NCBI GenBank assembly: GCA_016841875.1
Contig: JAENYG010000002.1
Span: 171,334-224,141 of the forward strand
Direction of reading: 5' to 3'
From: Syntrophomonas sp.
Lineage (GTDB): Bacteria > Bacillota > Syntrophomonadia > Syntrophomonadales > Syntrophomonadaceae
DNA length: 52,808 bases
Positions 7,462 through 30,911 of this stretch are shown here, one piece after another. The translations under genes were made by a program, and so were the position numbers. Under the pieces are notes generated by a model, which was not told the origin of the DNA, ran no database searches, and was given only the letters and a program-made list of their open reading frames with translations. Position 1 is the stretch's first letter; each line of letters opens with the position of its first letter.

Positions 7462-8049
7462 ATGAACATGGCAGCAGGAGTGCAGCAGGTTCAACCGCCT
7501 CAGCCGCCAGCCTGGAAAGCTGCACTGAGCATGATGATGAATCCAGGGGAAGTGGTCAAAAGGCAAATGGCGGCAGTACCCTGGCCGGTTTCGCTTTCCA
7601 TCTCGGGTACGGCATTTACCCTTTTCTTCCTGCAGACCGGTATAGATATGATGAGGAGCGGACAGCTGGAGGTCTCAGCGGTAGCGCTGATGGCCTTCCT
7701 GGGCATACTCTATGGTACCCTTGGTATCGCAGCTATTGCAGTTTTAACCTGGGTCTTAACTAAAGCGGCTGGTAATACTTACACTTTAGGGTGGACAGTA
7801 TCTACCTTTGCGCTCGGTTACAGTGCTACCCTGGTGTATGCAGTAATTGGGCTGATTTGCTCCCTGGCCTTCGGTTGGAAGACTGCGGTGGCTTTTGGGG
7901 TCACCGGTGTTCTCTGGGCCCTGCGCCCCACCATATTTACCATCCGGCAGATGACTAGCGACAAAGCAGGTCTCAGCGTTGCCATAGCTACCCTGTGCGG
8001 TGCTATCTTATTGTTTGGCTGGGCTATGCTGGGTCGTTTTGGTTTTTAG
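7462..8049 (+). CDS. Polytopic membrane protein, Yip1-like (cluster gene 1)
   Basis: 195 residues. A short Gln/Pro-rich cytoplasmic start is followed by an MMNPGEVVKRQMA segment, then about five hydrophobic spans. The order 'N-P-x-E/x, then paired spans' resembles Yip1-family proteins, but the match is weak. AGAGGAG lies 10 bases before the ATG. First gene of the seven-gene + strand cluster; 16 bases separate it from the next gene, so they are co-transcribed. A role in building or anchoring the export site for the giant protein encoded downstream is inference only. Confidence 0.7.
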   Translation: MNMAAGVQQVQPPQPPAWKAALSMMMNPGEVVKRQMAAVPWPVSLSISGTAFTLFFLQTGIDMMRSGQLEVSAVALMAFLGILYGTLGIAAIAVLTWVLTKAAGNTYTLGWTVSTFALGYSATLVYAVIGLICSLAFGWKTAVAFGVTGVLWALRPTIFTIRQMTSDKAGLSVAIATLCGAILLFGWAMLGRFGF

Positions 8050-8065
8050 ATGGGGGGCTTTATAA

Positions 8066-8542
8066 ATGGCAAAAAGAAAATCTAAACACTATGATTTTAC
8101 CCCGGCTTATTTTATGTTTGTAGTATTCGGTCTTATGAGTGCGGATACAACTGGAGGAGAAATCGATATTACCCGCACACTCATCGGGGTAGCTATAGCT
8201 CTGGTGGTGGCCTACCTGGTTATTAATCTTATGGTAATACTTCTGAATGGTGCCAACAGAGAACTGCGGCAGCAAAAGGGGCCGGCTTTCAGCAAAGTCA
8301 TGGTAAGCAGGGGCATGTTTTATATGCTGCCTTTTGTGATACTAGCAGCTCTGGCTCAATATGTATTGGGTTGGAATGCAGGCATGTCATTTGCTTCTGC
8401 AGCGATAATGACAGCAGGAGCATCTACCGGGATGGAGGCTATAAAAGAGGGCGCTCAGGGGGCTAAAAATGTGCTGATCCCTACTATTGTAGGAACCTTG
8501 GCATCTACAGCCTGGATGCTTTCTCTTACTCTGCTGCCTTAG
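8066..8542 (+). CDS. Four-span membrane protein of unknown family (cluster gene 2)
   Basis: 158 residues. A basic start (MAKRKSKHYDF) is followed by four hydrophobic segments at about residues 12-24, 35-55, 85-105 and 135-155, with a charged loop (NGANRELRQQKG) after the second. I recognise no family. GGGGGG at 8052-8057 serves as ribosome site. It lies 27 bases before the giant gene and is probably part of the same transcript. Confidence 0.7.
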   Translation: MAKRKSKHYDFTPAYFMFVVFGLMSADTTGGEIDITRTLIGVAIALVVAYLVINLMVILLNGANRELRQQKGPAFSKVMVSRGMFYMLPFVILAALAQYVLGWNAGMSFASAAIMTAGASTGMEAIKEGAQGAKNVLIPTIVGTLASTAWMLSLTLLP

Positions 8543-8569
8543 CCCATGATAAATTGGAGGTGAAGAAGT

Positions 8570-11500
8570 ATGTTGCATCTTAGAAATAAGGTATTAAATA
8601 GATCCAATTGCAGGGCCAGATGTGCTGCCGGGATTTTTGCAGCAGTATTCTTGTTTTTTACCCTGCTGCAGTTTACGCTGGCTCCAGGGATTGCACTGGC
8701 AGGAACGATACGGGATGTGATTGAAGATGTTGCCACGAATCTTTCTGAGGCGGAATTCCAGTTTGGTTCAGAAAGTGTTACCGGAATGAATATGGGCCTG
8801 CATGCCTGTGTAGGAGAATATTCTAATGGGGGCGCTTCAATAGCAGTTGTGGGACCGGCTGATTCGAGCCAGATGACCGGGTTACTGGACTATGTAGCCA
8901 GTCAGGCAGGCAGCAGTGGAACCAAAACGAGCAATATTAGCGGCTGTGAAGTGCGTGAATATCGGATGTCAGGTGGAGCAGCGGTAGGAGTTTTGCTGCC
9001 GGAATATCTGGTGACAGTCGAGATATATGAGAGCGGAAATGGAACTGATTGGGAAGTCAGCCAGGCCAGGCACTTGGCTCAGTTAACCCTGGATGGTTTG
9101 GAAAGAGCGGGGGTTTTAAATAATCCGGCTCCGCAGCTGGAAGGTGAGGCTGATACTGGTTCAAACCCGGATATATATATAGATACTGAGGAAGAAAGCC
9201 CGGGTCTTATTGGTACTATTAAGGATATTTTGGGATTGGATGAGGAAGATACCGGGGAAGGTGAGTCAACCCCGGAAATATATATCGATACAGAAGAAGA
9301 GGCCGGGAACTTCATCGATATGATCAAAAATATTTTTACATCAGAAGATAATGGGGGGAAAGCAGGTCAAGCGATTCCCAAGGCCGAGCCGGTACAGGTT
9401 TCCAATACCAATAATATAGCGGGAGTACAAAGCGGACCTACGGTGCCTACTACTTTTACTATAAACCAACCGCATCTAGTTACTTTCATTCAAGATTACC
9501 ACTGGAACTCGGCTCAGGGTGCAGCACCAGGAACCATAGCCCTGCAGGATCAGAATGGAGTTTTGTATGGGCCCTGGCAGGTTACTACCAGGGATGGTCA
9601 GGGGGGAGTCAAGAATGCTTATTGGGAAGTGTGGCCGGATGTAGTTATACCAGCCGGCACCTATACCATAATCGATTCTGACCCGGCTACCTGGTCCCAA
9701 AATGCAGAGTCCGGCGGCCGGGGGATGGGTGAAGTTCGGGCCACGCCTTATTTTGAAGTGGTCGGAGGGACTGTTGATAGCGGCAGCGATTCTTCGAACC
9801 AGCAGCCTTGGGATTCTTGCAATTGTGAACCTCAGGCCGGGATCGGTTCAGTAGGAAATATACCAGGACCAGAGACAACTACTGAGGCAGTAGTAGGAGT
9901 TGTAGCTCCTGGTCTGATCAGTGTTGCCCTGGGCGCCCTGGGGGCACTGGGCGGTGGTGGAGGCCCCATTGGCGGTATGCAGATACCTCCGGGAGGAAGT
10001 GGTCCCATGCCGGGAAGCGGGGGATCTTATCCAAGTGGATCCTATCCGGGACAATCTGGGGCAGGAGCTTATGAGCCAGCTGCAGGAATGGGCAAGGGCA
10101 GAAAACCTGAAGAATATGGGGACGGAATGTACATTGAGACGGAGCAAGAAGCTTACCGTCCTGGTGGCACTAATGGGGATGGAACATATATTGAGACGGC
10201 GCAAGAAGCCTACCGTCCTGGTGGCACCAATGGGGATGGAACATATATTGAGACGGCGCAAGAAGCCTACCGTCCTGGTGGCACCAATGGGGATGGAATA
10301 TACATTGAGACGGAGCAGGAGGCCTACCACCCAGGCGGTCAGGAAGCCGGGGGTATTTTGATTGATAGTGCTGCTTCAGTACTGCCAGGAGCTTCGGGTC
10401 CAGCAGCGGCTGCCGCTGCTGGAGGAATCAGCATAGATACCGATGCAGTAGCAGGAGCGGGTGTCCAGCCTGCTGCGGCTGAGCAGAGCCAGGCAGTTGG
10501 CGGCGCGGCCGGGTCATCAGCGGCACAGCCGGGTACTGGCCTGGGAGATACCGGGCCTGGACCGGAGCAGATGAAGACTGATCAGGAGGCATCGGGTCTA
10601 ACAGACAAAAGTACTGCTGACGCCACTTACGATCCCGAAGGTTATGACCAGCAGGGATATGACCAAAATGGCTATGATAGGGATGGCTACAACATAGATG
10701 GTTTTAATAAAGACGGCTTTGATCAAAATGGATTCGATAAAGAGGGTTACAATATCGAGGGCCGGGATAAAGAGGGCTTTGATAGAGAGGGCTATGATGT
10801 ACCTGGTTATGACCGGGATGGCTTTGATGATAAAGGTTTTGACCGCGAAGGTTATAACTCTGCAGGTTTTGATAAAGACGGTTTTAACAAAGAAGGCTTC
10901 GATAAATATGGATATGATTCGGATGGATATGATGCGGAAGGTTTCAACCGTGAGCATTATGACCGGGAAGGATTCGATCAGAGCGGTTATGACAAAGAGG
11001 GCTATGATCGAGAAGGTTTGAACCATCAGGGCTATGACCGGGAAGGTTATAATACCGAAGGATTTGATCGACAGGGTTATGACCGGGAAGGGTTCAACCG
11101 GGATGGCTACAATTCCCAGGGATATGATCACGACGGTTATAACCGGGAAGGCTATGACCTGGAAGGCTATAACAAAGATGGCTATAATCGCAGCGGTTAT
11201 GATAGAGAAGGCTATGACCGGGATGGTTATCACCAGGATGGTTATGATGAGGAAGGGTTTGACCGCAACGGTTATGACAAAGAGGGTTTTGATCACGAAG
11301 GATACGATAAGAATGGCTTCAACCAGGATGGCTTTGATAAAGAAGGTTTTGATCGGGAGGGCTTTGACAGCCAGGGATATAACCATGAAGGATACGACAA
11401 AAATGGATTTAATCAAGAGGGTTTTGATAAAGATGGATTTAACCGGGATGGCTATGACCAGGAAGGGTATAACAAAGACGGTTTTGGCAAAGAGGGCTTA

Positions 11501-14500
11501 GACCGTGAAGGTTATGATAAGGAAGGGTTCAACCTGGAAGGCTACGACCGGGAAGGCTTTGATCGCAATGGCTTTGATAGCGAAGGCTATTCCCGCAGCG
11601 GTTTTGATCAGAATGGTTATGACCGGGAAGGCTACGATGTGAATGGCTATGATGAACACGGGTATAACCGCAGCGGTTACGATGCCAAAGGTTATGACAA
11701 GGGCGGCTATGACAAGAATGGCTTTGATAAAGAAGGCTGGGATAGAGATGGTTATGGCCGCAATGGGCTGAATAAGGACGGATTTGACCGGGAGGGCTAT
11801 GATAAAAACGGTTATGATGCCGAGGGTTATGACCGGGAGGGCTATAACCGCGATGGATTGCAGCGGGAAGGCTATGATGAGTACGGTTATGACAAGAACG
11901 GATTTAACAAAGATGGCTTTGACCGGGACGGCTATGATATGGACGGTTTTAACTACGAGGGTTACAGCCGGGCCGGCTATGATCCCTGGGGCTTCGACCG
12001 GCACGGTTATGGAAAAGACGGCTATCACTGGAGCGGCTATAATGCGGATGGCTACAACCGCGATGGCTGGCACTGGAGTGACAATCCCTATGAGGGAGAT
12101 AGCCCATTTAATGTTGATACCCGTAATCCCTTTGAGGAGAATGCTGACATAACTCCGACCCATGAAGTCGAGATGGACGCGGACGGGAATATCATTGGTG
12201 GTCGCAGTTTGGCAGAGTCCTGGAAGCCAACCAAACCACCTCTGGGTGAACCGTATCCCCGCACCCTGGAGAAGTACGGGGCCAAGCCCTGGACGGAGGA
12301 ACCTACGACCCCGGTGCCGGGAGATGATAAATCTGTAAGCATACCAGACACCAAGGATGATTCGGGTTTTGTACCGGGGCCGGAAGATCCTATGGGAACC
12401 CTGGAACACCATGATGTTGGTCAAACGCCTGGGGTGAGTGACAGTGCGGAAATGCCGGATGATAGAAGTATACCCCAAAATATCCCGGAGGAAGACTGGC
12501 CGGAGAGTGGAGGAGATATACCAGAAGCTGGGGATATTCCTGGACAAGAGCCGGGAATAGCCGATTCTGATACCTTTACGGTTACTGATCCAGCCACCGG
12601 CGAGACCACTACTTATGAGTATCCAGAGGGTTATACCGGACCCAGGCATGGAGACAGCAAGATACTAGTTGGCAAAACCGATGGTCAAACCTACGAAATC
12701 GGGTATGATGCTACCACTGGGCGCTGGGTCAATAAAGAATCCGGTAACTGGATGGATCCCGATGATTTTGACCGCTGGCAGAATGACCTGGCTGAAGACA
12801 AGCGGCGCAGCGAAATTGATTTAGAAAAGATGAGCAAGCGGGAAGACGCCAACAGCAAAGCCATCGATAAAAACCTGAAAACATTTGATGAGCTGAATAA
12901 GATGGAAGAAAGCGCAATTAAGCACGGAGTAGGCAACAAGGGCGGCCCGGGAGATGTGGAAAAGGCCATCGAAGACATGAAGCAGGATATGCTGGATGGC
13001 AAAGAAGTCGATGCCGATCGGATGGAACAGATAAAAAGGATCATCAAAGGCAAAATCCGCGGTGACTGGACGGAAGATACCGGTGAACGATGGGAAGAAG
13101 ATCCCTGGTATGAAGATATCGGTTCAGCCCTGAAGGCTAATGCTGATACATTCAAAGAGTTAGTGACCGGTCAGGATTCGGATGGAAATATATCCTGGCT
13201 GGGGATGGGAGGCCGTATCGCGATGGCTGCCGCCACCGGTGGAGCTACCGAGTACGGGATGACTGTCGCCGAAGCCATGTTCAGAATTCAAGAGAGTGTG
13301 GATAAGGGTGAATCAGACTTCAGAGCCGTGGCTAAAGCCATAGGTATGGTGATAATGGAAGAGAGTGTTTCAAGATATTTTGAAGGAGCAGCTAAACTGG
13401 GAACAGATGAGATGGCACGAAGATTCCCGGCTCTCACGAACAAGGTTGCAGATATTATTGAAACCGGTGTACTAAAAGTCCTCAAAGCCGATCAGGCGGT
13501 AAGTTCAAAATTAGGCATGATTGGCAGAGAAGGTGCAGAAGAAACAATAGATCAGATCAATAAACGCCTGGCAGACCTGGGCTCAGATGCGGCTGAAGAA
13601 GGAACGGAGCAGATGATTAAGGGCACCGGCAAAGGTGCGGCGGGTACAGCAGATGAACTTGGAGAAGCCACCGCCAAGAGTGTGGCGGGAACCGGTGATG
13701 AGGCCGGAGAAGCAGCAGCCAAGAGTGTGGCGGGTACCGGTGATGAAGCTGGAGAAGCAGCAGCCAAGAGTGCTGCCGGAACTGGCGACGAAGCAGGAGA
13801 GGCTGCCGCCAAGAGTACCGCACAGACGGGAGACGAAGCCGGAGAAGCAGCAGCCAAGAGTGCTGCCGGAACCGGTGATGAAGCAGGAGAAGCCGCTGCC
13901 AAGAGCGCAGCCGAATCTGGTGATAAGGCAGCCGATGCGGCTGGAAAAGCCACTCAGGAAGCAGGTGCCCAGGCGGAAGATACCGTAAAACAAAACGTTA
14001 AAGATTTTGATAAGCTGCCAGATAAACAGAAAGCAGAGTTAATAGAATCACAGCAGGGTTATGACGAATATGTTGAAGCTGCAACTAACAAAGGCAAGGA
14101 TCTGGCTAATAAAGTACAGAACGGTGAAGCCATCAGCGAAGCCGACCTGCTTAATATGAAATCAGATCCAGCTGCTATGAGGAAATTCAAGGAACTGTCC
14201 GATCTTCCCGAGGCTGAAGCACACAAGGTTCAAACTGCTTTTAACGAAGCTATTGACGAAAAGATATACAAACCCACTTATGGCGAGGTTGAGACCCACA
14301 TTAAGGGTAATATCGATGAGGCAGCATTGAAAGCAAAATATGGGGAGGATATTCAGATCGAGGTGACTGTGGAGACTATCCGAACCCCTGGCAAGGAATA
14401 CCATTCCTATGATATTAACACGGATAATGATATTCACTCTGTTCTTACCATTAAGGATAAGCATGGCAATATTCTGGATGTGAAAGAAGTGCCACGTGGC

Positions 14501-15130
14501 GATTGGGAAGATGTATACTTTAAATCCTATTCTAAGAATACCGGGATGGTAGATGGTGCTGGTAATTTTAATACCAACCTGGCTAAAGAACGGTACCCGG
14601 ATGTGGAATGGGACAAGATGGCCAATGATGCCGACAAATGCAAGGCCTGGGCAGAATTGCATGAGGAAGCGCCTACGGATGTCTACCATCCTGAAGCAGC
14701 CAGGGATTTCAGTACCGAGAAGACTGCCATACTGAACGGCAAGGCTCCCGAGGAAGCTGCTGCTGCAGCAGCCAAGCATGGAAGGGGCACTCTGATGGAT
14801 GCCCAGCAGCTGGGACAGATGGAAACCTATAAAATTGGCCGATACTGGAATGAAGGCAGCGTTAAATCGCAAACTGAAGCTCTGGAACAGCTGGGCAAAC
14901 TGGGGAACCAGACTAAAGGGTTGGAACAGGGTTATTTTGATATGGGTTACGATATTAAACCTATGCCGCCCAAAATGGAAGAAGCTCTTAATGTAGTTAA
15001 GAATCGCAGTCTGGCCCCGGAGACCAGAGCAGCAAGACTACAGGAACTGGGATTTGATGGGCCTACTGACCTGGCTAACAAATTGGCCAGTCGGATACAT
15101 TCGCTTCCATTAGCATTACCCAAAAAGTAG
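8570..15130 (+). CDS. Giant secreted repeat protein with 96 (Y/F)(D/N)xxG pentapeptides (cluster gene 3)
   Basis: 2186 residues, no known overall match. Residues 1-44 are a signal peptide (basic start, hydrophobic core, ALA before Gly45). Residues 45-185 look globular. Residues ~195-270 hold YIDTEEE linkers. Residues ~290-405 are a beta-rich domain (TFTINQPHLVTF to DSDPATWSQN) that I recall from other surface proteins. After a Gly-rich hydrophobic stretch (~443-470) come four 19-residue repeats (518-593), then the pentapeptide array at 687-1166. Residues ~1167-1350 are acidic and Pro-rich, ~1370-1480 helical and charged, 1691-1795 seven 15-residue repeats, and ~1800-2186 a globular tail. Few cysteines. 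No sortase motif, no SLH domain and no C-terminal membrane anchor are seen, so attachment may depend on the neighbouring membrane proteins. AGGTGAAG precedes the ATG. A role as envelope filament, spacer or adhesin is inference. Confidence 0.9.
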   Translation: MLHLRNKVLNRSNCRARCAAGIFAAVFLFFTLLQFTLAPGIALAGTIRDVIEDVATNLSEAEFQFGSESVTGMNMGLHACVGEYSNGGASIAVVGPADSSQMTGLLDYVASQAGSSGTKTSNISGCEVREYRMSGGAAVGVLLPEYLVTVEIYESGNGTDWEVSQARHLAQLTLDGLERAGVLNNPAPQLEGEADTGSNPDIYIDTEEESPGLIGTIKDILGLDEEDTGEGESTPEIYIDTEEEAGNFIDMIKNIFTSEDNGGKAGQAIPKAEPVQVSNTNNIAGVQSGPTVPTTFTINQPHLVTFIQDYHWNSAQGAAPGTIALQDQNGVLYGPWQVTTRDGQGGVKNAYWEVWPDVVIPAGTYTIIDSDPATWSQNAESGGRGMGEVRATPYFEVVGGTVDSGSDSSNQQPWDSCNCEPQAGIGSVGNIPGPETTTEAVVGVVAPGLISVALGALGALGGGGGPIGGMQIPPGGSGPMPGSGGSYPSGSYPGQSGAGAYEPAAGMGKGRKPEEYGDGMYIETEQEAYRPGGTNGDGTYIETAQEAYRPGGTNGDGTYIETAQEAYRPGGTNGDGIYIETEQEAYHPGGQEAGGILIDSAASVLPGASGPAAAAAAGGISIDTDAVAGAGVQPAAAEQSQAVGGAAGSSAAQPGTGLGDTGPGPEQMKTDQEASGLTDKSTADATYDPEGYDQQGYDQNGYDRDGYNIDGFNKDGFDQNGFDKEGYNIEGRDKEGFDREGYDVPGYDRDGFDDKGFDREGYNSAGFDKDGFNKEGFDKYGYDSDGYDAEGFNREHYDREGFDQSGYDKEGYDREGLNHQGYDREGYNTEGFDRQGYDREGFNRDGYNSQGYDHDGYNREGYDLEGYNKDGYNRSGYDREGYDRDGYHQDGYDEEGFDRNGYDKEGFDHEGYDKNGFNQDGFDKEGFDREGFDSQGYNHEGYDKNGFNQEGFDKDGFNRDGYDQEGYNKDGFGKEGLDREGYDKEGFNLEGYDREGFDRNGFDSEGYSRSGFDQNGYDREGYDVNGYDEHGYNRSGYDAKGYDKGGYDKNGFDKEGWDRDGYGRNGLNKDGFDREGYDKNGYDAEGYDREGYNRDGLQREGYDEYGYDKNGFNKDGFDRDGYDMDGFNYEGYSRAGYDPWGFDRHGYGKDGYHWSGYNADGYNRDGWHWSDNPYEGDSPFNVDTRNPFEENADITPTHEVEMDADGNIIGGRSLAESWKPTKPPLGEPYPRTLEKYGAKPWTEEPTTPVPGDDKSVSIPDTKDDSGFVPGPEDPMGTLEHHDVGQTPGVSDSAEMPDDRSIPQNIPEEDWPESGGDIPEAGDIPGQEPGIADSDTFTVTDPATGETTTYEYPEGYTGPRHGDSKILVGKTDGQTYEIGYDATTGRWVNKESGNWMDPDDFDRWQNDLAEDKRRSEIDLEKMSKREDANSKAIDKNLKTFDELNKMEESAIKHGVGNKGGPGDVEKAIEDMKQDMLDGKEVDADRMEQIKRIIKGKIRGDWTEDTGERWEEDPWYEDIGSALKANADTFKELVTGQDSDGNISWLGMGGRIAMAAATGGATEYGMTVAEAMFRIQESVDKGESDFRAVAKAIGMVIMEESVSRYFEGAAKLGTDEMARRFPALTNKVADIIETGVLKVLKADQAVSSKLGMIGREGAEETIDQINKRLADLGSDAAEEGTEQMIKGTGKGAAGTADELGEATAKSVAGTGDEAGEAAAKSVAGTGDEAGEAAAKSAAGTGDEAGEAAAKSTAQTGDEAGEAAAKSAAGTGDEAGEAAAKSAAESGDKAADAAGKATQEAGAQAEDTVKQNVKDFDKLPDKQKAELIESQQGYDEYVEAATNKGKDLANKVQNGEAISEADLLNMKSDPAAMRKFKELSDLPEAEAHKVQTAFNEAIDEKIYKPTYGEVETHIKGNIDEAALKAKYGEDIQIEVTVETIRTPGKEYHSYDINTDNDIHSVLTIKDKHGNILDVKEVPRGDWEDVYFKSYSKNTGMVDGAGNFNTNLAKERYPDVEWDKMANDADKCKAWAELHEEAPTDVYHPEAARDFSTEKTAILNGKAPEEAAAAAAKHGRGTLMDAQQLGQMETYKIGRYWNEGSVKSQTEALEQLGKLGNQTKGLEQGYFDMGYDIKPMPPKMEEALNVVKNRSLAPETRAARLQELGFDGPTDLANKLASRIHSLPLALPKK
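10121..10348 (+). repeat. Four tandem 57-base (19-residue) repeats within the giant gene
   Basis: Unit DG-x-YIET(E/A)QEAYRPGGTNG, residues 518-593; units 2 and 3 are almost identical at DNA level, the fourth degenerates after YHPGG. The core YI(D/E)T(E/A)xEA echoes the isolated YIDTEEE motifs near residues 200 and 240 and ILIDSAAS/ISIDTDAV after the repeats, suggesting the whole stretch grew from one short motif. Confidence 0.9.
10628..12067 (+). repeat. 96-unit pentapeptide array, 15-base period
   Basis: 1440 bases = 96 consecutive five-residue units without one insertion or deletion. Consensus is (Y/F)(D/N)-x-(E/D/N/S)-G: position 1 is Tyr or Phe in all but a handful (Leu, Trp, Arg), position 2 Asp or Asn in nearly all, position 5 Gly in 95 (His once). 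Position 3 is most often Arg or Lys. Codon choice varies from unit to unit, so the pattern is held at protein level rather than by recent slippage. Confidence 0.95.
13640..13954 (+). repeat. Seven tandem 45-base (15-residue) repeats within the giant gene
   Basis: Unit A(G)TGDEAGEAAAKS(A/V/T), residues 1691-1795; the first and last copies are diverged. Ala/Glu/Lys composition predicts a helical rod. Confidence 0.9.
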
Positions 15131-15155
15131 CAGCGAGGTAAAGGAGGATAATAAA

Positions 15156-16484
15156 ATGAAAAGTGAGCAGTTAATAAAAGGTAATCCGGAAATATTCAAA
15201 TTGATGCCCAGAGATATTGACCATATTTATAAAAGGGCTAACCTGAGTGGCAATACCCTTTCGCCTTTCAGGTATTCCTCCACCGAGGCTGAATATCCAC
15301 AGCCTTCGGAATGGGCTCAGGCACTTTTTGAGGCTCCGGTATTTGCCCGGGCCGCCCGGCTGCTATTAGAGCCTGACCTTAAAATAATGTATCACAGCGG
15401 GGGAGGCGGAACTGCAGAAGATGCTTTCCCGGTGTTAATGCGGCAGGATGACTCAGCGGTGCTGATGGCAGCTAAGAACAAGGATGATGATTTCCTGTGC
15501 TTAATGTTCCCGAGTATTAGCCAGTTTCTCGATTGGTGGTGCAGCATGTATTCCAATCTGATAAAGGATGAATACCCGTCACCCTTTAATAATGCTATGC
15601 CCCTGGAAACGTTACTTTCGGCCCTGCATAGTATTGACATTTACCGGCGGTCGTATATGGAGAGCATGCTAAATTATAAATTGGAACAGGGAATGTCAGT
15701 AAGAAGGCCTGATTTTCTAGGTACTCTGACTAAGGCTCTGGCCAGCGGCGATATTCGCTGGCTCCTGCCGTCTATATTCAGGTTAACGCCAGGTCTGACC
15801 TCGGTACAATTAAAACTTCTGCCGGAACACCTGGAGGAAGTGGAAAAGATGGGTATCATAAAATCCTGGACCGATGAAAATCAAGAAAATATGTATACTC
15901 TATCGGAAAACGGCAAAATTCTGGGGTCGGAATTCAGCTACACCTGGATGAGTTCCATAGGCTGGAAAGCCTCCATACTGAAAGCCGGGCAGGAAATGAT
16001 CTTATCCCGGGTATATCTGGCTCCGACTGCCTTCACCAATCATTTATTTTCTTTCCAGGCCACTCCGGCAGGGAGTTTTACTTGTAACCATCAGAGTTTG
16101 ACCGGGGTTAAGCTGCGGGAAAACCTGGATCAGTGGTTTAAGACCATATATGATTATGCGGCTAAAAACTTGCAGCAGCGACCTGCTCAGGCAGCAGTTC
16201 CCCCACCACCGCCGGTTAAAGCTGCACAGCCTGCTCCACCACCGATACCACAGGCCCAGGTGGCTCCGCCGCCAGCTCCAAAGACACAGCCGACTCCGCC
16301 GCCCATACCAGAGCCCCGGCAGCAGGAAATACCTGAGCAGAAGCCCAGGTCTGAAATGCCGGTACCGCCACCTGTGGGCCAAAAGCGGAAAGTGCCCAAG
16401 TGCCCGGCCTGTCAGATGGAAATTGAACCCGGCCAGCGTTTTTGTGGCAGCTGTGGAACTCCTTTGCCCAAGTCCAACTGGTAA
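15156..16484 (+). CDS. Cytosolic protein with proline-rich linker and C-terminal zinc ribbon (cluster gene 4)
   Basis: 442 residues, no signal peptide or membrane span. Residues ~1-345 look like a mixed alpha/beta globular region of no family I recognise; a segment near 225-260 (LTSVQLKLLPEHLEEVEKMG) could be a winged helix. Residues ~346-410 are PPPP-rich. A zinc ribbon closes the protein: Cys416, Cys419, Cys430, Cys433. AAAGGAGG precedes the ATG; it begins 26 bases after the giant gene and ends 21 bases before the next, so it is clearly in the operon. A chaperone or export-adaptor role for the giant protein is inference. Confidence 0.8.
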   Translation: MKSEQLIKGNPEIFKLMPRDIDHIYKRANLSGNTLSPFRYSSTEAEYPQPSEWAQALFEAPVFARAARLLLEPDLKIMYHSGGGGTAEDAFPVLMRQDDSAVLMAAKNKDDDFLCLMFPSISQFLDWWCSMYSNLIKDEYPSPFNNAMPLETLLSALHSIDIYRRSYMESMLNYKLEQGMSVRRPDFLGTLTKALASGDIRWLLPSIFRLTPGLTSVQLKLLPEHLEEVEKMGIIKSWTDENQENMYTLSENGKILGSEFSYTWMSSIGWKASILKAGQEMILSRVYLAPTAFTNHLFSFQATPAGSFTCNHQSLTGVKLRENLDQWFKTIYDYAAKNLQQRPAQAAVPPPPPVKAAQPAPPPIPQAQVAPPPAPKTQPTPPPIPEPRQQEIPEQKPRSEMPVPPPVGQKRKVPKCPACQMEIEPGQRFCGSCGTPLPKSNW

Positions 16485-16504
16485 TATGACAGGGAGGGTA
16501 TAAT

Positions 16505-17665
16505 ATGAGTCAGTTTAAAACATGCCAGCAGTGTAAGGCGCAGATCGAAGCAGGAGCCAAATTCTGTCCCTACTGCGGTTTCAATAATACCTTGGCACCT
16601 CCGGTCCAGCCACCGGGGGGAATGCAGCATCCACCAGGAGCTGCTCCCGGGCAGTCGCCCACGCCGACTGCTGCTGGAAGGCCAGGAGCAGCCGGGCCTC
16701 CGCACGGGCAGCAGGTGCAAAGACCAGTGGGACCACCGCCTCAGGCAGCCAATCCGCCACCTTATCAGGGAGGGCTACCGCCAGGCCAAATAGGGAGAGC
16801 ACCGATGCCTCCTCAGGGTCATCAGCAGTACCCGCCACCTCAGAATGACTATCAGGGAACTCCACCACCAGGGGTGTATCGTCCTCCTCAACCCCGGCAG
16901 AAAAGCCCGGTGGGGATCATCGTGTTAGTAGTAGTGCTGCTGGCTCTAATAGCTGGAGGAGTATTTGTATATAAGTCGTTAAGCCCTGGAGATAATAACC
17001 AGGTTCAGCCTGCGGGAGGAACTTCTCTACTAGACAAGCTGCTTGATTCGGTCAAAGGTGAGCCGAGTTATGATTTAAGCAAACCGGAGACCTATCTGCC
17101 AGCCCCAGGGCTGCAGATGACCTATTATGAAATGTATATGGATGGAGATGAAGGGCCTCTCGACCTGGTTACTGCCAGCATTATTCCCAATGCATTGGTC
17201 AGTGACGCCAGTATGTTTACGGACGGAGATGGGGAAGTGTATGCGGGAGTCTGCCATTATTTCAAAAAGGCTGATGGGGGCGTCTATTATATTTTCGATG
17301 AAGATCCAAGCTACAGCTATCCGGTTCTGCCAGCATTGATACAGTCAGGAGTATCCTGGATATATACCAGTGAATATGGGGATGTGGTTTACACCATTAA
17401 GCAGCTGGGAGCCAGCTGTACATTAGACTGCGGTACGCTAACAGATTGTCTGGTGGTTGAAGAGGATAACCAGATATTCGGAACCCGGGAGGCGTCTTAT
17501 TATGCCCCGGGTATGGGACTGGTTTTGCGGCAGTCTATTCCGGACGGAGCTAATTTATACCGGCTGACTTCCTATCAGCAGATGGATGCTCAGGAAGCCA
17601 AAACTATACTCTTAACTTATTGTGTGAATCATGAGCAGATAAACAGCCAACTGTCGGGCCAATAG
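16505..17665 (+). CDS. Single-span membrane protein: N-terminal zinc ribbon, proline-rich linker, outer domain (cluster gene 5)
   Basis: 386 residues. A zinc ribbon opens the protein (Cys7, Cys10, Cys21, Cys24; CPYCG). Residues ~28-133 are Pro/Gln/Gly-rich. One membrane span lies at ~136-158 (VGIIVLVVVLLALIAGG). Residues ~165-386 form an outer domain of no known family, rich in Tyr/Gly and with several Cys. By the positive-inside rule the ribbon and linker are cytosolic. The zinc-ribbon and Pro-rich parts mirror those at the end of the preceding protein, suggesting the two meet at the membrane. AGGGAGG precedes the ATG. Confidence 0.8.
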   Translation: MSQFKTCQQCKAQIEAGAKFCPYCGFNNTLAPPVQPPGGMQHPPGAAPGQSPTPTAAGRPGAAGPPHGQQVQRPVGPPPQAANPPPYQGGLPPGQIGRAPMPPQGHQQYPPPQNDYQGTPPPGVYRPPQPRQKSPVGIIVLVVVLLALIAGGVFVYKSLSPGDNNQVQPAGGTSLLDKLLDSVKGEPSYDLSKPETYLPAPGLQMTYYEMYMDGDEGPLDLVTASIIPNALVSDASMFTDGDGEVYAGVCHYFKKADGGVYYIFDEDPSYSYPVLPALIQSGVSWIYTSEYGDVVYTIKQLGASCTLDCGTLTDCLVVEEDNQIFGTREASYYAPGMGLVLRQSIPDGANLYRLTSYQQMDAQEAKTILLTYCVNHEQINSQLSGQ

Positions 17666-17666
17666 A

Positions 17667-17695
17667 ATGACACAACAAAAACGTCCCCTTGTGTC
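17667..17695 (-). repeat. REP-like half element (ACAAGGGGACG family, reverse arm)
   Basis: One arm (GACACAACAAAAACGTCCCC...) of the inverted repeat found complete at 5024 and 30912, starting 2 bases after the stop of cluster gene 5. The complementary arm is at 19041, on the other side of the first paralog gene. Confidence 0.8.
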
Positions 17696-17724
17696 GGGAC
17701 ACACCTGCTTCTCAGGAATGTCCC
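17696..17724. repeat. REP-like hairpin, second family, copy 1
   Basis: GGGACA...TGTCCC outer stem with an inner CCTG...CAGG stem. It is repeated at 17736-17766. Confidence 0.8.
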
Positions 17725-17735
17725 GGTCAAGGTCA

Positions 17736-17766
17736 GGGGACACACCTGCTTCTCAGGAATGTCCCC
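17736..17766. repeat. REP-like hairpin, second family, copy 2 (inserted relative to the paralog copy)
   Basis: GGGGACA...TGTCCCC around CACCTGCTTCTCAGGAA. It lies between CAAGGTCA and TTATATAAGG, two strings that are directly joined at 19072-19090 upstream of the paralogous gene. Confidence 0.85.
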
Positions 17767-17788
17767 ATTATATAAGGAGTACTGATGA

Positions 17789-19036
17789 ATGGATGTTAAT
17801 AGAGGCACAAGAATAGAACTCATCCGAAGAGTTATTCTGGCGGCTGCTATATTGTTAGGTGTTTTTCTGTTTATGTATGTTAGACCTGCTGTAGTAACAG
17901 TAGTATGGCAGGATTTCGCAGCGGAACAGGAAAATCTGCTGGATTCTCCCTATTATGTGGGAGAGGAAGAGAAGCTTTTACATGAACTGCCGCTGCAGGA
18001 ATATATTGAAGAGGTTACTGCCGGAAAAGTAATTCAGCTGGAAGAAAACGAATGGGGGAATTTCTTTAATGAGGTTTACCTGGCCAGTTCCGGGCAGTAT
18101 GAAAAATCAATATATGGAGACAGGATAAGTGATATTAATAAGGACTGGTATTTTGAACCGGGAGAAAAATATGTAGGAGTATTTTTTTCTCCTGATGAAC
18201 TGCCTATAGCAGATTGGGGACTTAGAAAATATCTGGATACGATGTATCTGTCCACTCGGGTACAGGATAATACCGTATACCTTAAGGCAATCTACTGGGA
18301 TTACCGGAATCCTGCTGATAGACCATATACCCTGGCTCCAAGCAGCATGTATTATCCATATAAGATATGGGGCGAAATCTTTATCATGATTGGTTTACTC
18401 CTGGCCATATTTTTACCCAGGGTCAAACCAGAAGATTCTGATCTTACCTTCAGTAAATCATCTATTATATTAGGCGATATTATGGGAATAGTTCTACTGT
18501 TGCTTTTTTATTCTCTTCCTTTTCTAATTAGTGAAGGGTCGATTCAGTCTATTACCGGCTGGTGGGGCTTGACCATGATATTTTGGACATTTGCCGTCGC
18601 TGCTCTATTTATAATGTATGCAAATGCCTGGGCCGCATCATATCAGATCAAGTTCAACCCCGATGGGATTTACCGCGTGACCTTTAAGGGTATTGATGAA
18701 TACTTGTATTCGGATATCGATTCAGTAAATGAAGTTGTCCTTACTTACCCGGAGTGGTTCTTAAAAATTTATCGTATAATAATTGTTTTTTCAGCTCTCT
18801 CTGGCAGAGGAGCTGTGACCACTGTGGCTGGTCCATATATGCTGGCAGAAAGCGCAGTTTATGGCGGGTTGGCTTTGAAAAGTCGGGATGGCAGAAGCAC
18901 CTTGGTATGGTATACAGATCAAAACGGAAGTACTATACTGCCCGGTTATGAAAGGATTATTGACGAATGCCAGACTAGAGGAATAACTTATAATCACTTT
19001 CCTGAGACAATGAAAGGATTCTATTTCTTTAAATAA
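17789..19036 (+). CDS. Membrane protein with outer domain and bacterial-PH-like tail, paralog A (cluster gene 6)
   Basis: 415 residues. A span at ~13-34 is followed by an outer domain (~35-195; YLASSGQYEKSIYGDRIS), three further spans at about 196-210, 228-250 and 258-282, and a C-terminal cytosolic region (~285-415) whose opening (YQIKFNPDGIYRVTFKGIDEY, then DIDSVNEV) looks like a bacterial PH domain. About half its residues match the next gene, so it is one half of a tandem duplication. The ribosome site AAGGAG is shared with that copy. A second ATG four bases earlier is out of frame. REP elements lie on both sides. Confidence 0.8.
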   Translation: MDVNRGTRIELIRRVILAAAILLGVFLFMYVRPAVVTVVWQDFAAEQENLLDSPYYVGEEEKLLHELPLQEYIEEVTAGKVIQLEENEWGNFFNEVYLASSGQYEKSIYGDRISDINKDWYFEPGEKYVGVFFSPDELPIADWGLRKYLDTMYLSTRVQDNTVYLKAIYWDYRNPADRPYTLAPSSMYYPYKIWGEIFIMIGLLLAIFLPRVKPEDSDLTFSKSSIILGDIMGIVLLLLFYSLPFLISEGSIQSITGWWGLTMIFWTFAVAALFIMYANAWAASYQIKFNPDGIYRVTFKGIDEYLYSDIDSVNEVVLTYPEWFLKIYRIIIVFSALSGRGAVTTVAGPYMLAESAVYGGLALKSRDGRSTLVWYTDQNGSTILPGYERIIDECQTRGITYNHFPETMKGFYFFK

Positions 19037-19040
19037 AGGA

Positions 19041-19066
19041 TGACACAAGGGGACGTTTTTGTTGTG
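19041..19066 (+). repeat. REP-like half element (ACAAGGGGACG family, forward arm)
   Basis: GATGACACAAGGGGACG then TTTTTGTTGTG, directly after the stop of paralog A. It is inverted relative to the arm at 17667, so the gene is flanked by an inverted pair. Confidence 0.8.
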
Positions 19067-19101
19067 CCCGGGCAAGGTCATTATATAAGGAGTACTGATA
19101 A

Positions 19102-20355
19102 ATGGATGGTACAAATAAAGGCACTAGAATAGAACTGATCAGAAGAATTATCATGGTAGCAGCAGTTATCCTGGGGATTGGATTTATTGGCTATGTTACT
19201 CCGACTTTGATTACCCTGGAATGGATCGATTTTCAGCGGGATCAGGCGGAAGAGCTTCAATCCCCCTATGGTTTTATAACAGAAGAAGATAAACGCCGGG
19301 CGGCTCTGCCCATAGATGAATATATTGCGGAGATAAGCGAAGGAAATATTATCAAGCTTGATCCAGGCCAATGGGGGACTTTTTTTGAGCAGGTTTATTT
19401 GGCTAGTTCAGGTCAGTACTCTCAATCGATTTATGGGAATCGGGTCAGTGAAATGGATAAGGAATGGTATTTTTCACCTGAAGAAAAATCTGTTTGGGTA
19501 TTCTTCCAGCCTGATGAATTACCTATCGAATCATGGGGACTACGCAGGCATTATGATACAGCCTATCTAAGTACGGAGATCCTGGGAAACACCTCCTACC
19601 TCAAATCAATCTACTGGGATTACACCGATCCCTATAACCGACCTTATACCGAACCGCCTGCCCGTATGCTCAATCCCTTGCGAACTGCAGGTATCATTAT
19701 TCTGGCTGCTGGCATAATGCTGGCTTTCCTTCTTCCCCGGAGAAAACCAGAAGAGGGAGATGTGTTCTACAGAGCGGGGTCGATAGCGGCCGGTGATTTC
19801 GTGGGGCTGCTGCTTTTTGGTACATTCCTGGGACTGTCGGTACTAATAAGTGAAGGCAGTATGCAGGTGTTTGGGGATTTGTGGATAATAACGGTGGTTA
19901 TGATGTTTATGGCCTGCTTTGGTATTCTGATCTTGTATGCCAATGGATGGCATGCCAGCTACCGGTTAAAATTCCTACCGGAAGCCCTGCTCAGGATTAC
20001 TTTCAAAGGTGTAGATCATTACACGTATACAGATATATCTTCCGTAGAGGAAGTGGTCCTGGTTTATCCCAAATGGTTCCTATGGGTCTTCCGGATTTTA
20101 ATCCTGTTTTCCCTGCTCTCTGGTAAAGGAGCAACTACCTCAACCGCAGGACCTTACCTTTTGGCAGAATCAGCTTCTTATGCCGGCCTGGCAGTAAAAA
20201 GAAGAGATGGAAGACCATTGTACATCTGGTATGGTGATCAGATGGGCAATGTGATTCTTCCCGGTTATGAAAGGGTTATTGAGGAATGCAGGCAGCATGG
20301 AATAGTGTATAATGATGAACCCCAGATGGTACGAGGATTCATGTATATGAAATAG
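19102..20355 (+). CDS. Membrane protein with outer domain and bacterial-PH-like tail, paralog B (cluster gene 7)
   Basis: 417 residues, same layout as the preceding gene: span ~13-34, outer domain ~35-200 (QVYLASSGQYSQSIYGNRVS), three spans ~200-285, PH-like tail (YRLKFLPEALLRITFKGVDHY, DISSVEEV). The strongest identity is around the YLASSGQY loop, the DWG/SWGLR segment and the tail (ILPGYERVIEECR). The shared upstream string CAAGGTCA plus TTATATAAGGAGTACTGAT shows the duplication included the ribosome site. Last gene of the cluster; a REP terminator follows. Confidence 0.8.
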   Translation: MDGTNKGTRIELIRRIIMVAAVILGIGFIGYVTPTLITLEWIDFQRDQAEELQSPYGFITEEDKRRAALPIDEYIAEISEGNIIKLDPGQWGTFFEQVYLASSGQYSQSIYGNRVSEMDKEWYFSPEEKSVWVFFQPDELPIESWGLRRHYDTAYLSTEILGNTSYLKSIYWDYTDPYNRPYTEPPARMLNPLRTAGIIILAAGIMLAFLLPRRKPEEGDVFYRAGSIAAGDFVGLLLFGTFLGLSVLISEGSMQVFGDLWIITVVMMFMACFGILILYANGWHASYRLKFLPEALLRITFKGVDHYTYTDISSVEEVVLVYPKWFLWVFRILILFSLLSGKGATTSTAGPYLLAESASYAGLAVKRRDGRPLYIWYGDQMGNVILPGYERVIEECRQHGIVYNDEPQMVRGFMYMK

Positions 20356-30617: not shown

Positions 30618-30742
30618 TAATTATTTCTCATAGGCATCTTCTCCTTTCCAAAAGGGAGGCCTGCAGGTTTCCCTACAAACCCTAGCGGTCTATGTACCAT
30701 GGTAATAACTTTAGGTTTCACAGACTCGGAGACTATGTATTT
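30618..30742 (-). ncRNA. Moco/Tuco (molybdenum/tungsten cofactor) riboswitch
   Basis: In the - strand leader of tupA I read, in order, the blocks recalled as conserved in the Moco RNA motif: TCTCCGAG (near 30730), a central hairpin, GGCCTCCC-TTTT-GGAAAGGAG (30645-30665) and GCCTATGAGAAA (about 30624-30636). The 3' block can pair with the 5' end. Its place ahead of a tungstate transporter fits ligand and gene. The call is by eye; a covariance search would settle it. Confidence 0.72.
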
Positions 30743-30911
30743 TCGACCTTATTTTTTATTATTCGGGAATTAATGAATTTTGTCAATGGGTCAGGCAATA
30801 ACCTACTAACTTGGTCGTCCCCATTAACAAAGTTGTAACCCCCAAAACCCCGTCGGCTCACATAAACCGACGGGTATCTTTGAAGATAAATACGAAGGAT
30901 TAAAACTTAAG
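30743..30911. other. Intergenic stretch upstream of the tup leader
   Basis: No gene seen. It holds a truncated GGGTCAGGCAATAAC string (about 30786), reminiscent of the GGGGTCAGG repeats at 33881 and 51145, and a perfect stem CCCGTCGG/CCGACGGG at 30849-30874 that is followed by GTTTT on the - strand. The tup promoter should lie here but I cannot place it with confidence. Confidence 0.5.

What the first reader, a model, noticed from the sequence alone, without database searches (positions are those of the whole stretch)
7462..20355. Seven-gene envelope cluster around a giant YDxxG-repeat protein: candidate undescribed system
Seven + strand genes with gaps of 16-27 bases through the first five, then two paralogs with conserved ribosome sites. 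Seen: two small multispan proteins, a 2186-residue secreted protein, a soluble protein ending in a zinc ribbon, a bitopic protein starting with a zinc ribbon, and two paralogous membrane proteins with outer domains and PH-like tails. The giant protein has a signal peptide but no anchor I can see, so the five membrane/adaptor proteins may export, fold and hold it. I cannot map this set to type IV pili, ESX, sortase, S-layer or polymorphic toxin systems. Function (filament, adhesin, spacer between syntrophic partners) is inference.
Basis: partly seen in the sequence, partly recalled or inferred. Interest (0 to 1): 0.88.

Follow-up and report, generated by a model that had tools for sequence, protein, structure and literature searches.

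The report
Swappable-tip giant protein with EspG-like chaperone
A conserved gene cluster in syntrophic Clostridia makes a giant membrane-targeted protein whose C-terminal module is swapped between species (in some relatives for a bacterial cyclase-toxin domain) and is paired with a chaperone of a fold otherwise known from type VII secretion, although these genomes seem to lack that secretion system; it looks like an undescribed toxin or effector system.

Summary
The seven genes and the YDxxG giant are real (93 of 97 five-residue units fit; shuffles give about 10). The cluster recurs: 27 loci in named genomes (Syntrophomonas, Sporotomaculum, Sporomusa ovata, a Desulfosporosinus MAG and others), mostly in the order g1-g2-giant-g4-g5-g6. 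Apart from zinc ribbons nothing matches Pfam or NCBIfam. Three findings change the reading. (1) The giant has a constant front and an exchangeable C-terminal module. The window's module (type A, confident model, no PDB match) is replaced in relatives by a distant class II nucleotidyl cyclase domain (CyaA/EF/ExoY kind) with an extra downstream gene, or by a third type. (2) Gene 4 folds like EspG, the ESX chaperone (also the fold of EsaE, chaperone of the staphylococcal toxin EsaD), yet no WXG100 or EssC genes were found. (3) The giant is probably not anchorless: homologs carry a second hydrophobic segment (440-458). Repeats are dispensable: distant relatives lack them. Best reading: an undescribed polymorphic toxin/effector system with its own membrane proteins and an EspG-fold chaperone, not primarily an adhesin or filament. 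Toxicity, immunity to type A, and whether the module leaves the cell are unproven.

The parts
7462..8049 (+). g1: small multi-span membrane protein, Yip1-like (weak), first in the cluster
   Evidence: Yip1 E 0.0098, below cut-off; 40-62% identity to relatives, long invariant stretch GWKT.VAFGVTGV
8066..8542 (+). g2: small multi-span membrane protein
   Evidence: 22-45% identity, 13 invariant columns incl. distant relatives
8570..15130 (+). giant protein, 2186 aa
8570..8698 (+). signal peptide of the giant (hydrophobic core 19-37, ALA-G cleavage-like site)
9425..9829 (+). 'YHWN' domain (res 286-420), best conserved outer part (61-91% identity)
9887..9943 (+). conserved second hydrophobic segment after NIPGP (res 440-458), probable membrane span
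10628..12073 (+). YDxxG pentapeptide repeats, res 687-1168
   Evidence: absent from L092, L093, L137
12074..13609 (+). conserved pre-module region (TGRWVNKESGN motif and C1), res 1169-1680
   Evidence: motif also in L092, L093, L137
13610..13969 (+). Ala-rich repeat linker (AAGTGDEAGEAAAKS), res 1681-1800
13970..15127 (+). C-terminal module type A, res 1801-2186; conserved RTPG..NxDxD, D237, D246 (module numbering)
   Evidence: (pLDDT 91.2)
15156..16484 (+). g4: EspG-fold core (res 12-340) plus C-terminal zinc ribbon (res 413-438)
16505..17665 (+). g5: N-terminal zinc ribbon, one membrane span (136-154), conserved outer domain
17789..19036 (+). g6: membrane protein with outer domain and cytoplasmic tail
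19102..20355 (+). g7: tandem paralog of g6 (53% identity), single-copy in relatives

Best explanation
An undescribed polymorphic toxin/effector system. The giant is inserted into the membrane by a signal peptide and a second span, exposing a small conserved outer part (N1 and the YHWN domain). The long remainder (YDxxG tract as an extended spacer, pre-module region, swappable C-terminal enzyme-like module) is first in the cytosol, where g4, an EspG/EsaE-type chaperone, binds it, keeps it competent or harmless and brings it to a membrane complex built from g1, g2, g5 and g6. From there the module is delivered to a neighbouring cell, or less likely is switched on in the producing cell. Shown by computation: exchangeable C-termini, cyclase-toxin homology of type B in relatives, EspG fold of g4 (model), recurrent synteny, conserved second hydrophobic segment, no type VII genes found. 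Inferred: binding of g4 to the giant, roles of g1/g2/g5/g6, type A being a toxin, topology, delivery.
For: Constant front with at least three C-terminal types on the same scaffold: A, B, C. Type B profile against PDB: all 12 hits with E<1 are class II nucleotidyl cyclases (CyaA 1yrt E 0.0023, EF, ExoY 7p1h/8bjj), colinear over the Lys region and, in the alignments printed, the DxD; the same module sits on unrelated giant Streptomyces proteins. Type B comes with an extra gene between giant and g4 in each locus examined. One relative has an RHS protein after a truncated front (11 RHS repeats, E 2e-79). g4: the 14 best Foldseek hits are all EspG (E 9e-8 to 4e-5), Z 11-14 against 5.9 for the next fold. 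EsaE, chaperone of the toxin EsaD, has the same fold without sequence similarity (PMC10653861). Type A always occurs with g4 (8 of 8 genomes), on repeat-bearing and repeat-free scaffolds.
Against: No immunity gene stands beside type A in the window. The extra gene of type B also accompanies a type A-like module in L134, so it may be a second chaperone rather than immunity. Type A has no structural match, so its toxicity is unproven. No known export ATPase is linked. The conserved span with a K/R-poor front and K/R after it suggests the module stays in the cytosol unless something exports it.
Confidence: 0.6

Rival explanations
1. Transmembrane sensor-effector acting in the producing cell: the outer N1/YHWN part senses something, the cytosolic C-terminal enzyme (cyclase in type B, unknown in type A) signals or kills the cell, and g4 and the extra gene hold it off.
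For: Second hydrophobic segment in the homologs, with 0-3 K/R in the 30 residues before it and 2-7 K/R in the 60 after it; minimal relative L133 is signal peptide, outer domains, clear span ending LLKKR and a short tail followed by g4; L134 carries the module behind a multi-span N-terminus.
Against: No PADLOC hit of note and no defence neighbourhood was noticed in the window; modular reuse of type B on giant Streptomyces proteins and the RHS relative point to delivered toxins.
Confidence: 0.25
2. Surface filament, adhesin or spacer between syntrophic partners, with the small genes as assembly factors.
For: Very long acidic repeat tract, signal peptide, frequent in syntrophs.
Against: Repeats are missing in relatives with the same core; swapped enzyme-like C-termini; EspG-fold chaperone.
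Confidence: 0.1
3. Substrate operon of a type VII secretion system whose ATPase is encoded elsewhere in the genome.
For: EspG fold of g4.
Against: No WXG100 in the own genome; no match over the EssC cut-off, almost only short SpoIIIE/FtsK-like ones, in 61 genomes and in 9 genomes carrying g4; the giant has a signal peptide.
Confidence: 0.04

Closest known systems
EsaD-EsaE-EsaG of the Staphylococcus aureus type VIIb system
   Same: Polymorphic toxin with an EspG-fold targeting chaperone encoded nearby (PMC10653861); g4 Z 11-14 to EspG.
   Different: Here no EssC or WXG100 genes were found, the giant has a signal peptide and second hydrophobic segment, g4 usually carries a zinc ribbon, and no LXG domain was matched.
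ESX (type VIIa) PE/PPE-EspG
   Same: Chaperone fold of EspG1/3/5; substrate with a constant front and variable cargo.
   Different: No sequence similarity (PF14011 absent); substrate has no PE/PPE match; no ESX genes found.
Class II nucleotidyl cyclase toxins (CyaA, EF, ExoY and MARTX-ExoY)
   Same: Type B C-terminal module of relatives is a distant homolog.
   Different: Not present in the window; here carried on a bacterial membrane-targeted giant with a linked extra gene; the known ones are activated by eukaryotic proteins (abstract of PMC9223806).
RHS/YD-repeat polymorphic toxins
   Same: One relative has an RHS protein in the place of the repeats; both put a repeat region before a variable tip.
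   Different: The window's YDxxG pentapeptides do not match the RHS profile.

Membership tests
Polymorphic toxin systems | Constant N-terminal scaffold with exchangeable C-terminal modules | tested here: met
   types A, B, C on one scaffold
Polymorphic toxin systems | C-terminal module homologous to a known toxin | tested here: inconclusive
   met for type B of relatives; the window's type A matches nothing
Polymorphic toxin systems | Immunity gene directly downstream | tested here: inconclusive
   candidate gene with type B, but also with an A-like module in L134, and none beside type A in the window
Polymorphic toxin systems | Toxic activity and protection by the cognate gene | not testable with these tools
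   needs expression assays
EspG/EsaE chaperone fold | Structure similar to EspG1/3/5 | tested here: met
   Foldseek top 14 all EspG; VIA Z 11-14, 226-246 residues aligned, rmsd 3.9-5.5; model pLDDT 70.9, about 80 over the core
EspG/EsaE chaperone fold | Sequence match to EspG (PF14011) | tested here: not met
   EsaE also lacks sequence similarity
EspG/EsaE chaperone fold | Binds and targets a secretion substrate | not testable with these tools
   only genomic linkage to the giant is shown
Type VII secretion system | EssC/EccC ATPase | tested here: not met
   no match over the TIGR03928 cut-off in 61 genomes (own included) or 9 g4-bearing genomes
Type VII secretion system | WXG100 proteins | tested here: not met
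   none in the own genome
RHS toxins | RHS repeat profile in the giant | tested here: not met
   no PF05593 match in the window giant
Class II nucleotidyl cyclase toxins | Homology over Lys region and DxD in the type B module of relatives | tested here: met
   (best E 0.0023, all 12 hits one family); activity not tested; the module is not in the window
Known anti-phage defence systems | PADLOC model match | tested here: not met
   one weak hit only (ZorA, E 0.017)

The most novel reading that the evidence does not exclude
A new, type VII-independent protein export or delivery machine: g1, g2 (with g5, g6) form the membrane conduit and an EspG-fold chaperone loads a membrane-tethered giant toxin whose tip is exchanged between species, so that EspG-type chaperones serve more than one secretion system.
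Probability: 0.3. Interest if true: 0.9.

Novelty: new variant of a known kind. Interest (0 to 1): 0.72.

Why it matters
It links EspG-fold chaperones to a toxin-like giant in genomes where no type VII secretion was found, gives a set of proteins unknown to Pfam and NCBIfam a testable role, places cyclase-toxin-like domains in syntrophic anaerobes and relatives, and adds a well-modelled enzyme-like module (type A) without a recognised fold. Isolates carrying it exist (Sporomusa ovata DSM 2662, Sporotomaculum syntrophicum FB), so it can be tested.

Tried and rejected
Known families: Pfam, NCBIfam and PADLOC gave nothing but zinc ribbons and sub-threshold hits; DotG/IcmE, MrpH_C and ZorA were taken as low-complexity or chance matches. 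Type A against PDB by profile, by Foldseek, VIA-align (best Z 5.9, on the helical part) and BFVD: no relative; the DxD in a strand after RTPG suggested a nucleotidyltransferase, but this stays an idea. EspG by sequence: absent. Viral contigs with g4: none. Plasmids with the extra gene, type A and the pre-module region: none. Literature: no paper in the held library combines polymorphic toxins with Syntrophomonas or Yip1, with PrsW and zinc ribbon, or EspG with Firmicutes and zinc ribbon. The split giant of L044/L063 (G001) follows a run of unknown bases in the repeat linker and is read as an assembly gap, not a real split. The fused giant-g4 ORF of L085 lacks type A and the start of g4 and is read as a deletion remnant in a genome that also has a full copy.

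Full report
What is there. Seven + strand genes at 7462-20355 are as described: gaps 16, 27, 25 and 20 bases, then 123 and 65; g6 and g7 share the same ribosome site. The giant (2186 aa) reads: signal peptide; N1; a YHWN domain (286-420); NIPGP followed by a hydrophobic segment (440-458); Gly-rich linker; 97 five-residue YDxxG units (687-1168; 93 fit, shuffles about 10); a conserved pre-module region; an Ala-rich repeat linker; and a 386-residue C-terminal module. The flanking genes look ordinary by their sequence (permease, LuxR-type regulator, glycosyltransferase; identified by eye). The closest named relatives are Syntrophomonas MAGs.

It recurs. Of 81 genomes searched (own included), about 18 carry g4 with its core and 15 a full-length g6. 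Around g4 the order g1-g2-giant-g4-g5-g6 is kept in most loci whose contig is long enough, with extra genes inserted in some. A search of GTDB species found 27 loci, among them Sporomusa ovata DSM 2662, Sporotomaculum syntrophicum FB and MAGs assigned to Desulfosporosinus, Desulfotomaculaceae, Gelria and Thermacetogenium. The tandem g6/g7 pair was seen only in this genome.

The giant has an exchangeable tip. The front, repeats and pre-module region align throughout, but the C-terminus falls into types. Type A (window and most relatives) is a coherent family with conserved RTPG, NxDxD, D237 and D246. Type B replaces it in L048/L083, L051/L066, L053/L088 and L060/L084, each time with an extra gene of about 250-270 residues (motif CPF[TS]G) between giant and g4; L072 keeps the end of that gene. 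Type C occurs in L061/L076 and L079. A type B profile with Streptomyces homologs hits only class II nucleotidyl cyclases in the PDB (12 of 12 hits with E<1, best 0.0023), colinear over the Lys region and, in the alignments printed, the DxD. The same module lies in giant Streptomyces proteins of other make-up.

The repeats are not the core. In two other families of the phylum (L092, L093) the cluster is g1, g2, a 1256-1278-residue giant with signal peptide, the NIPGP segment and type B but no YDxxG tract, then the CPFTG gene and g4. In L137 the same layout without repeats carries type A and no extra gene. L135 has a truncated front followed by an RHS protein (11 RHS repeats), directly upstream of a complete YDxxG cluster. 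L133 is a minimal form: signal peptide, outer domains, a clear span, a short tail, then g4. L134 has a multi-span N-terminus, a type A-like module, a CPFTG gene and g4. Among 378 genomes type A occurs in 8, all with g4, and in no other setting.

g4 has the EspG fold. Its model (core about 80 pLDDT) matches EspG1 and EspG3 in Foldseek, the 14 best hits, E 9e-8 to 4e-5; VIA Z is 11-14 over 226-246 residues for EspG1, EspG3 and EspG5, the next fold at 5.9. There is no sequence match to EspG. The same situation was reported for EsaE, the chaperone of the polymorphic toxin EsaD of Staphylococcus aureus (DALI Z about 10 to EspG; PMC10653861). Yet no WXG100 was found in this genome, and neither 61 genomes nor 9 genomes that carry g4 have a match above the EssC cut-off, almost only short SpoIIIE/FtsK-like hits (one relative without g4, G035, has a 1547-residue frame below the cut-off).

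Topology. The 21 homologs examined, repeat-bearing and repeat-free, have the N-terminal signal segment and the segment after [NS]IPGP (a few show one further borderline stretch). In the wider set the 30 residues before it hold 0-3 K/R and the 60 after it 2-7; in the most distant members K/R follow at once. By the positive-inside rule (established knowledge) this favours outer N1/YHWN and a cytosolic remainder, at least at first. The segment is weak in L137 (1.29), and a hydropathy scale is not a topology experiment.

How it probably works. The parts fit a polymorphic toxin or effector whose tip is chaperoned in the cytosol by g4 and handed to a membrane complex of g1, g2, g5 and g6. Exchange of tips, the cyclase-toxin homology, the RHS relative and the EsaE parallel speak for a toxin. 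Against certainty: no immunity gene beside type A, the CPFTG gene is not specific to type B, type A has no recognised fold, and nothing shows that the tip leaves the cell. A sensor-effector acting in the producing cell is the main rival. g5 and g6 belong to the repeat-bearing clusters; no homologs were recognised by eye in L092, L093, L133 or L137, so the widest core is g1, g2, giant and g4 (L133 and L134 show no g1/g2 in the stretch held).

Known or new. No Pfam, NCBIfam or PADLOC family covers the set and the held literature gave no matching description. It works like a polymorphic toxin system with a type VII-style chaperone; it is not a member of type VII secretion by the two features tested (EssC, WXG100). 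I file it as a new variant of a known kind, with a real chance that the export route is new.

Noticed in passing
window 30625-30743, - strand: Moco (molybdenum/tungsten) riboswitch, 72 bits against a gathering score of 36.
   Followed up: no
L075 11032-13580, L070 13525-16028, L079 13455-16034, L135 17229-19501, L051 16806-18998: A LemA gene followed by a DUF2207 membrane protein gene lies directly downstream of the cluster in several relatives (identified by Pfam in L075), not in the window; a zinc-ribbon membrane protein gene ('INDPAF' motif) often flanks too.
   Followed up: partly
L068 1068-2600, L070 555-2129, L079 1175-2731, L136 15323-16906: A divergent gene of about 510-527 aa with an N-terminal HTH-like stretch sits upstream of g1 in several relatives: candidate regulator, no Pfam match for the one tested.
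   Followed up: no
L067 10630-12027 and L068 11094-12485: g5's zinc ribbon is fused to g6 and the g5 outer domain is missing, which suggests the ribbon is an adaptor for the g6 membrane protein.
   Followed up: no
L085 5255-10873 (Sporotomaculum syntrophicum): Second copy of the cluster in which giant and g4 are fused by a deletion that removed the type A module and the start of g4; a full copy is at L070.
   Followed up: yes
window 10598-11416 and 11498-12649, - strand: Long antisense ORFs opposite the YDxxG tract; most likely a by-product of the repeat's codon composition, not genes.
   Followed up: no
L094 6001-6525 (Streptomyces chartreusis plasmid NZ_CP108821.1): A cyclase-like module inside a very large 'lonely Cys domain-containing protein' gene of more than 31 kb; these giant proteins were not examined further.
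   Followed up: partly
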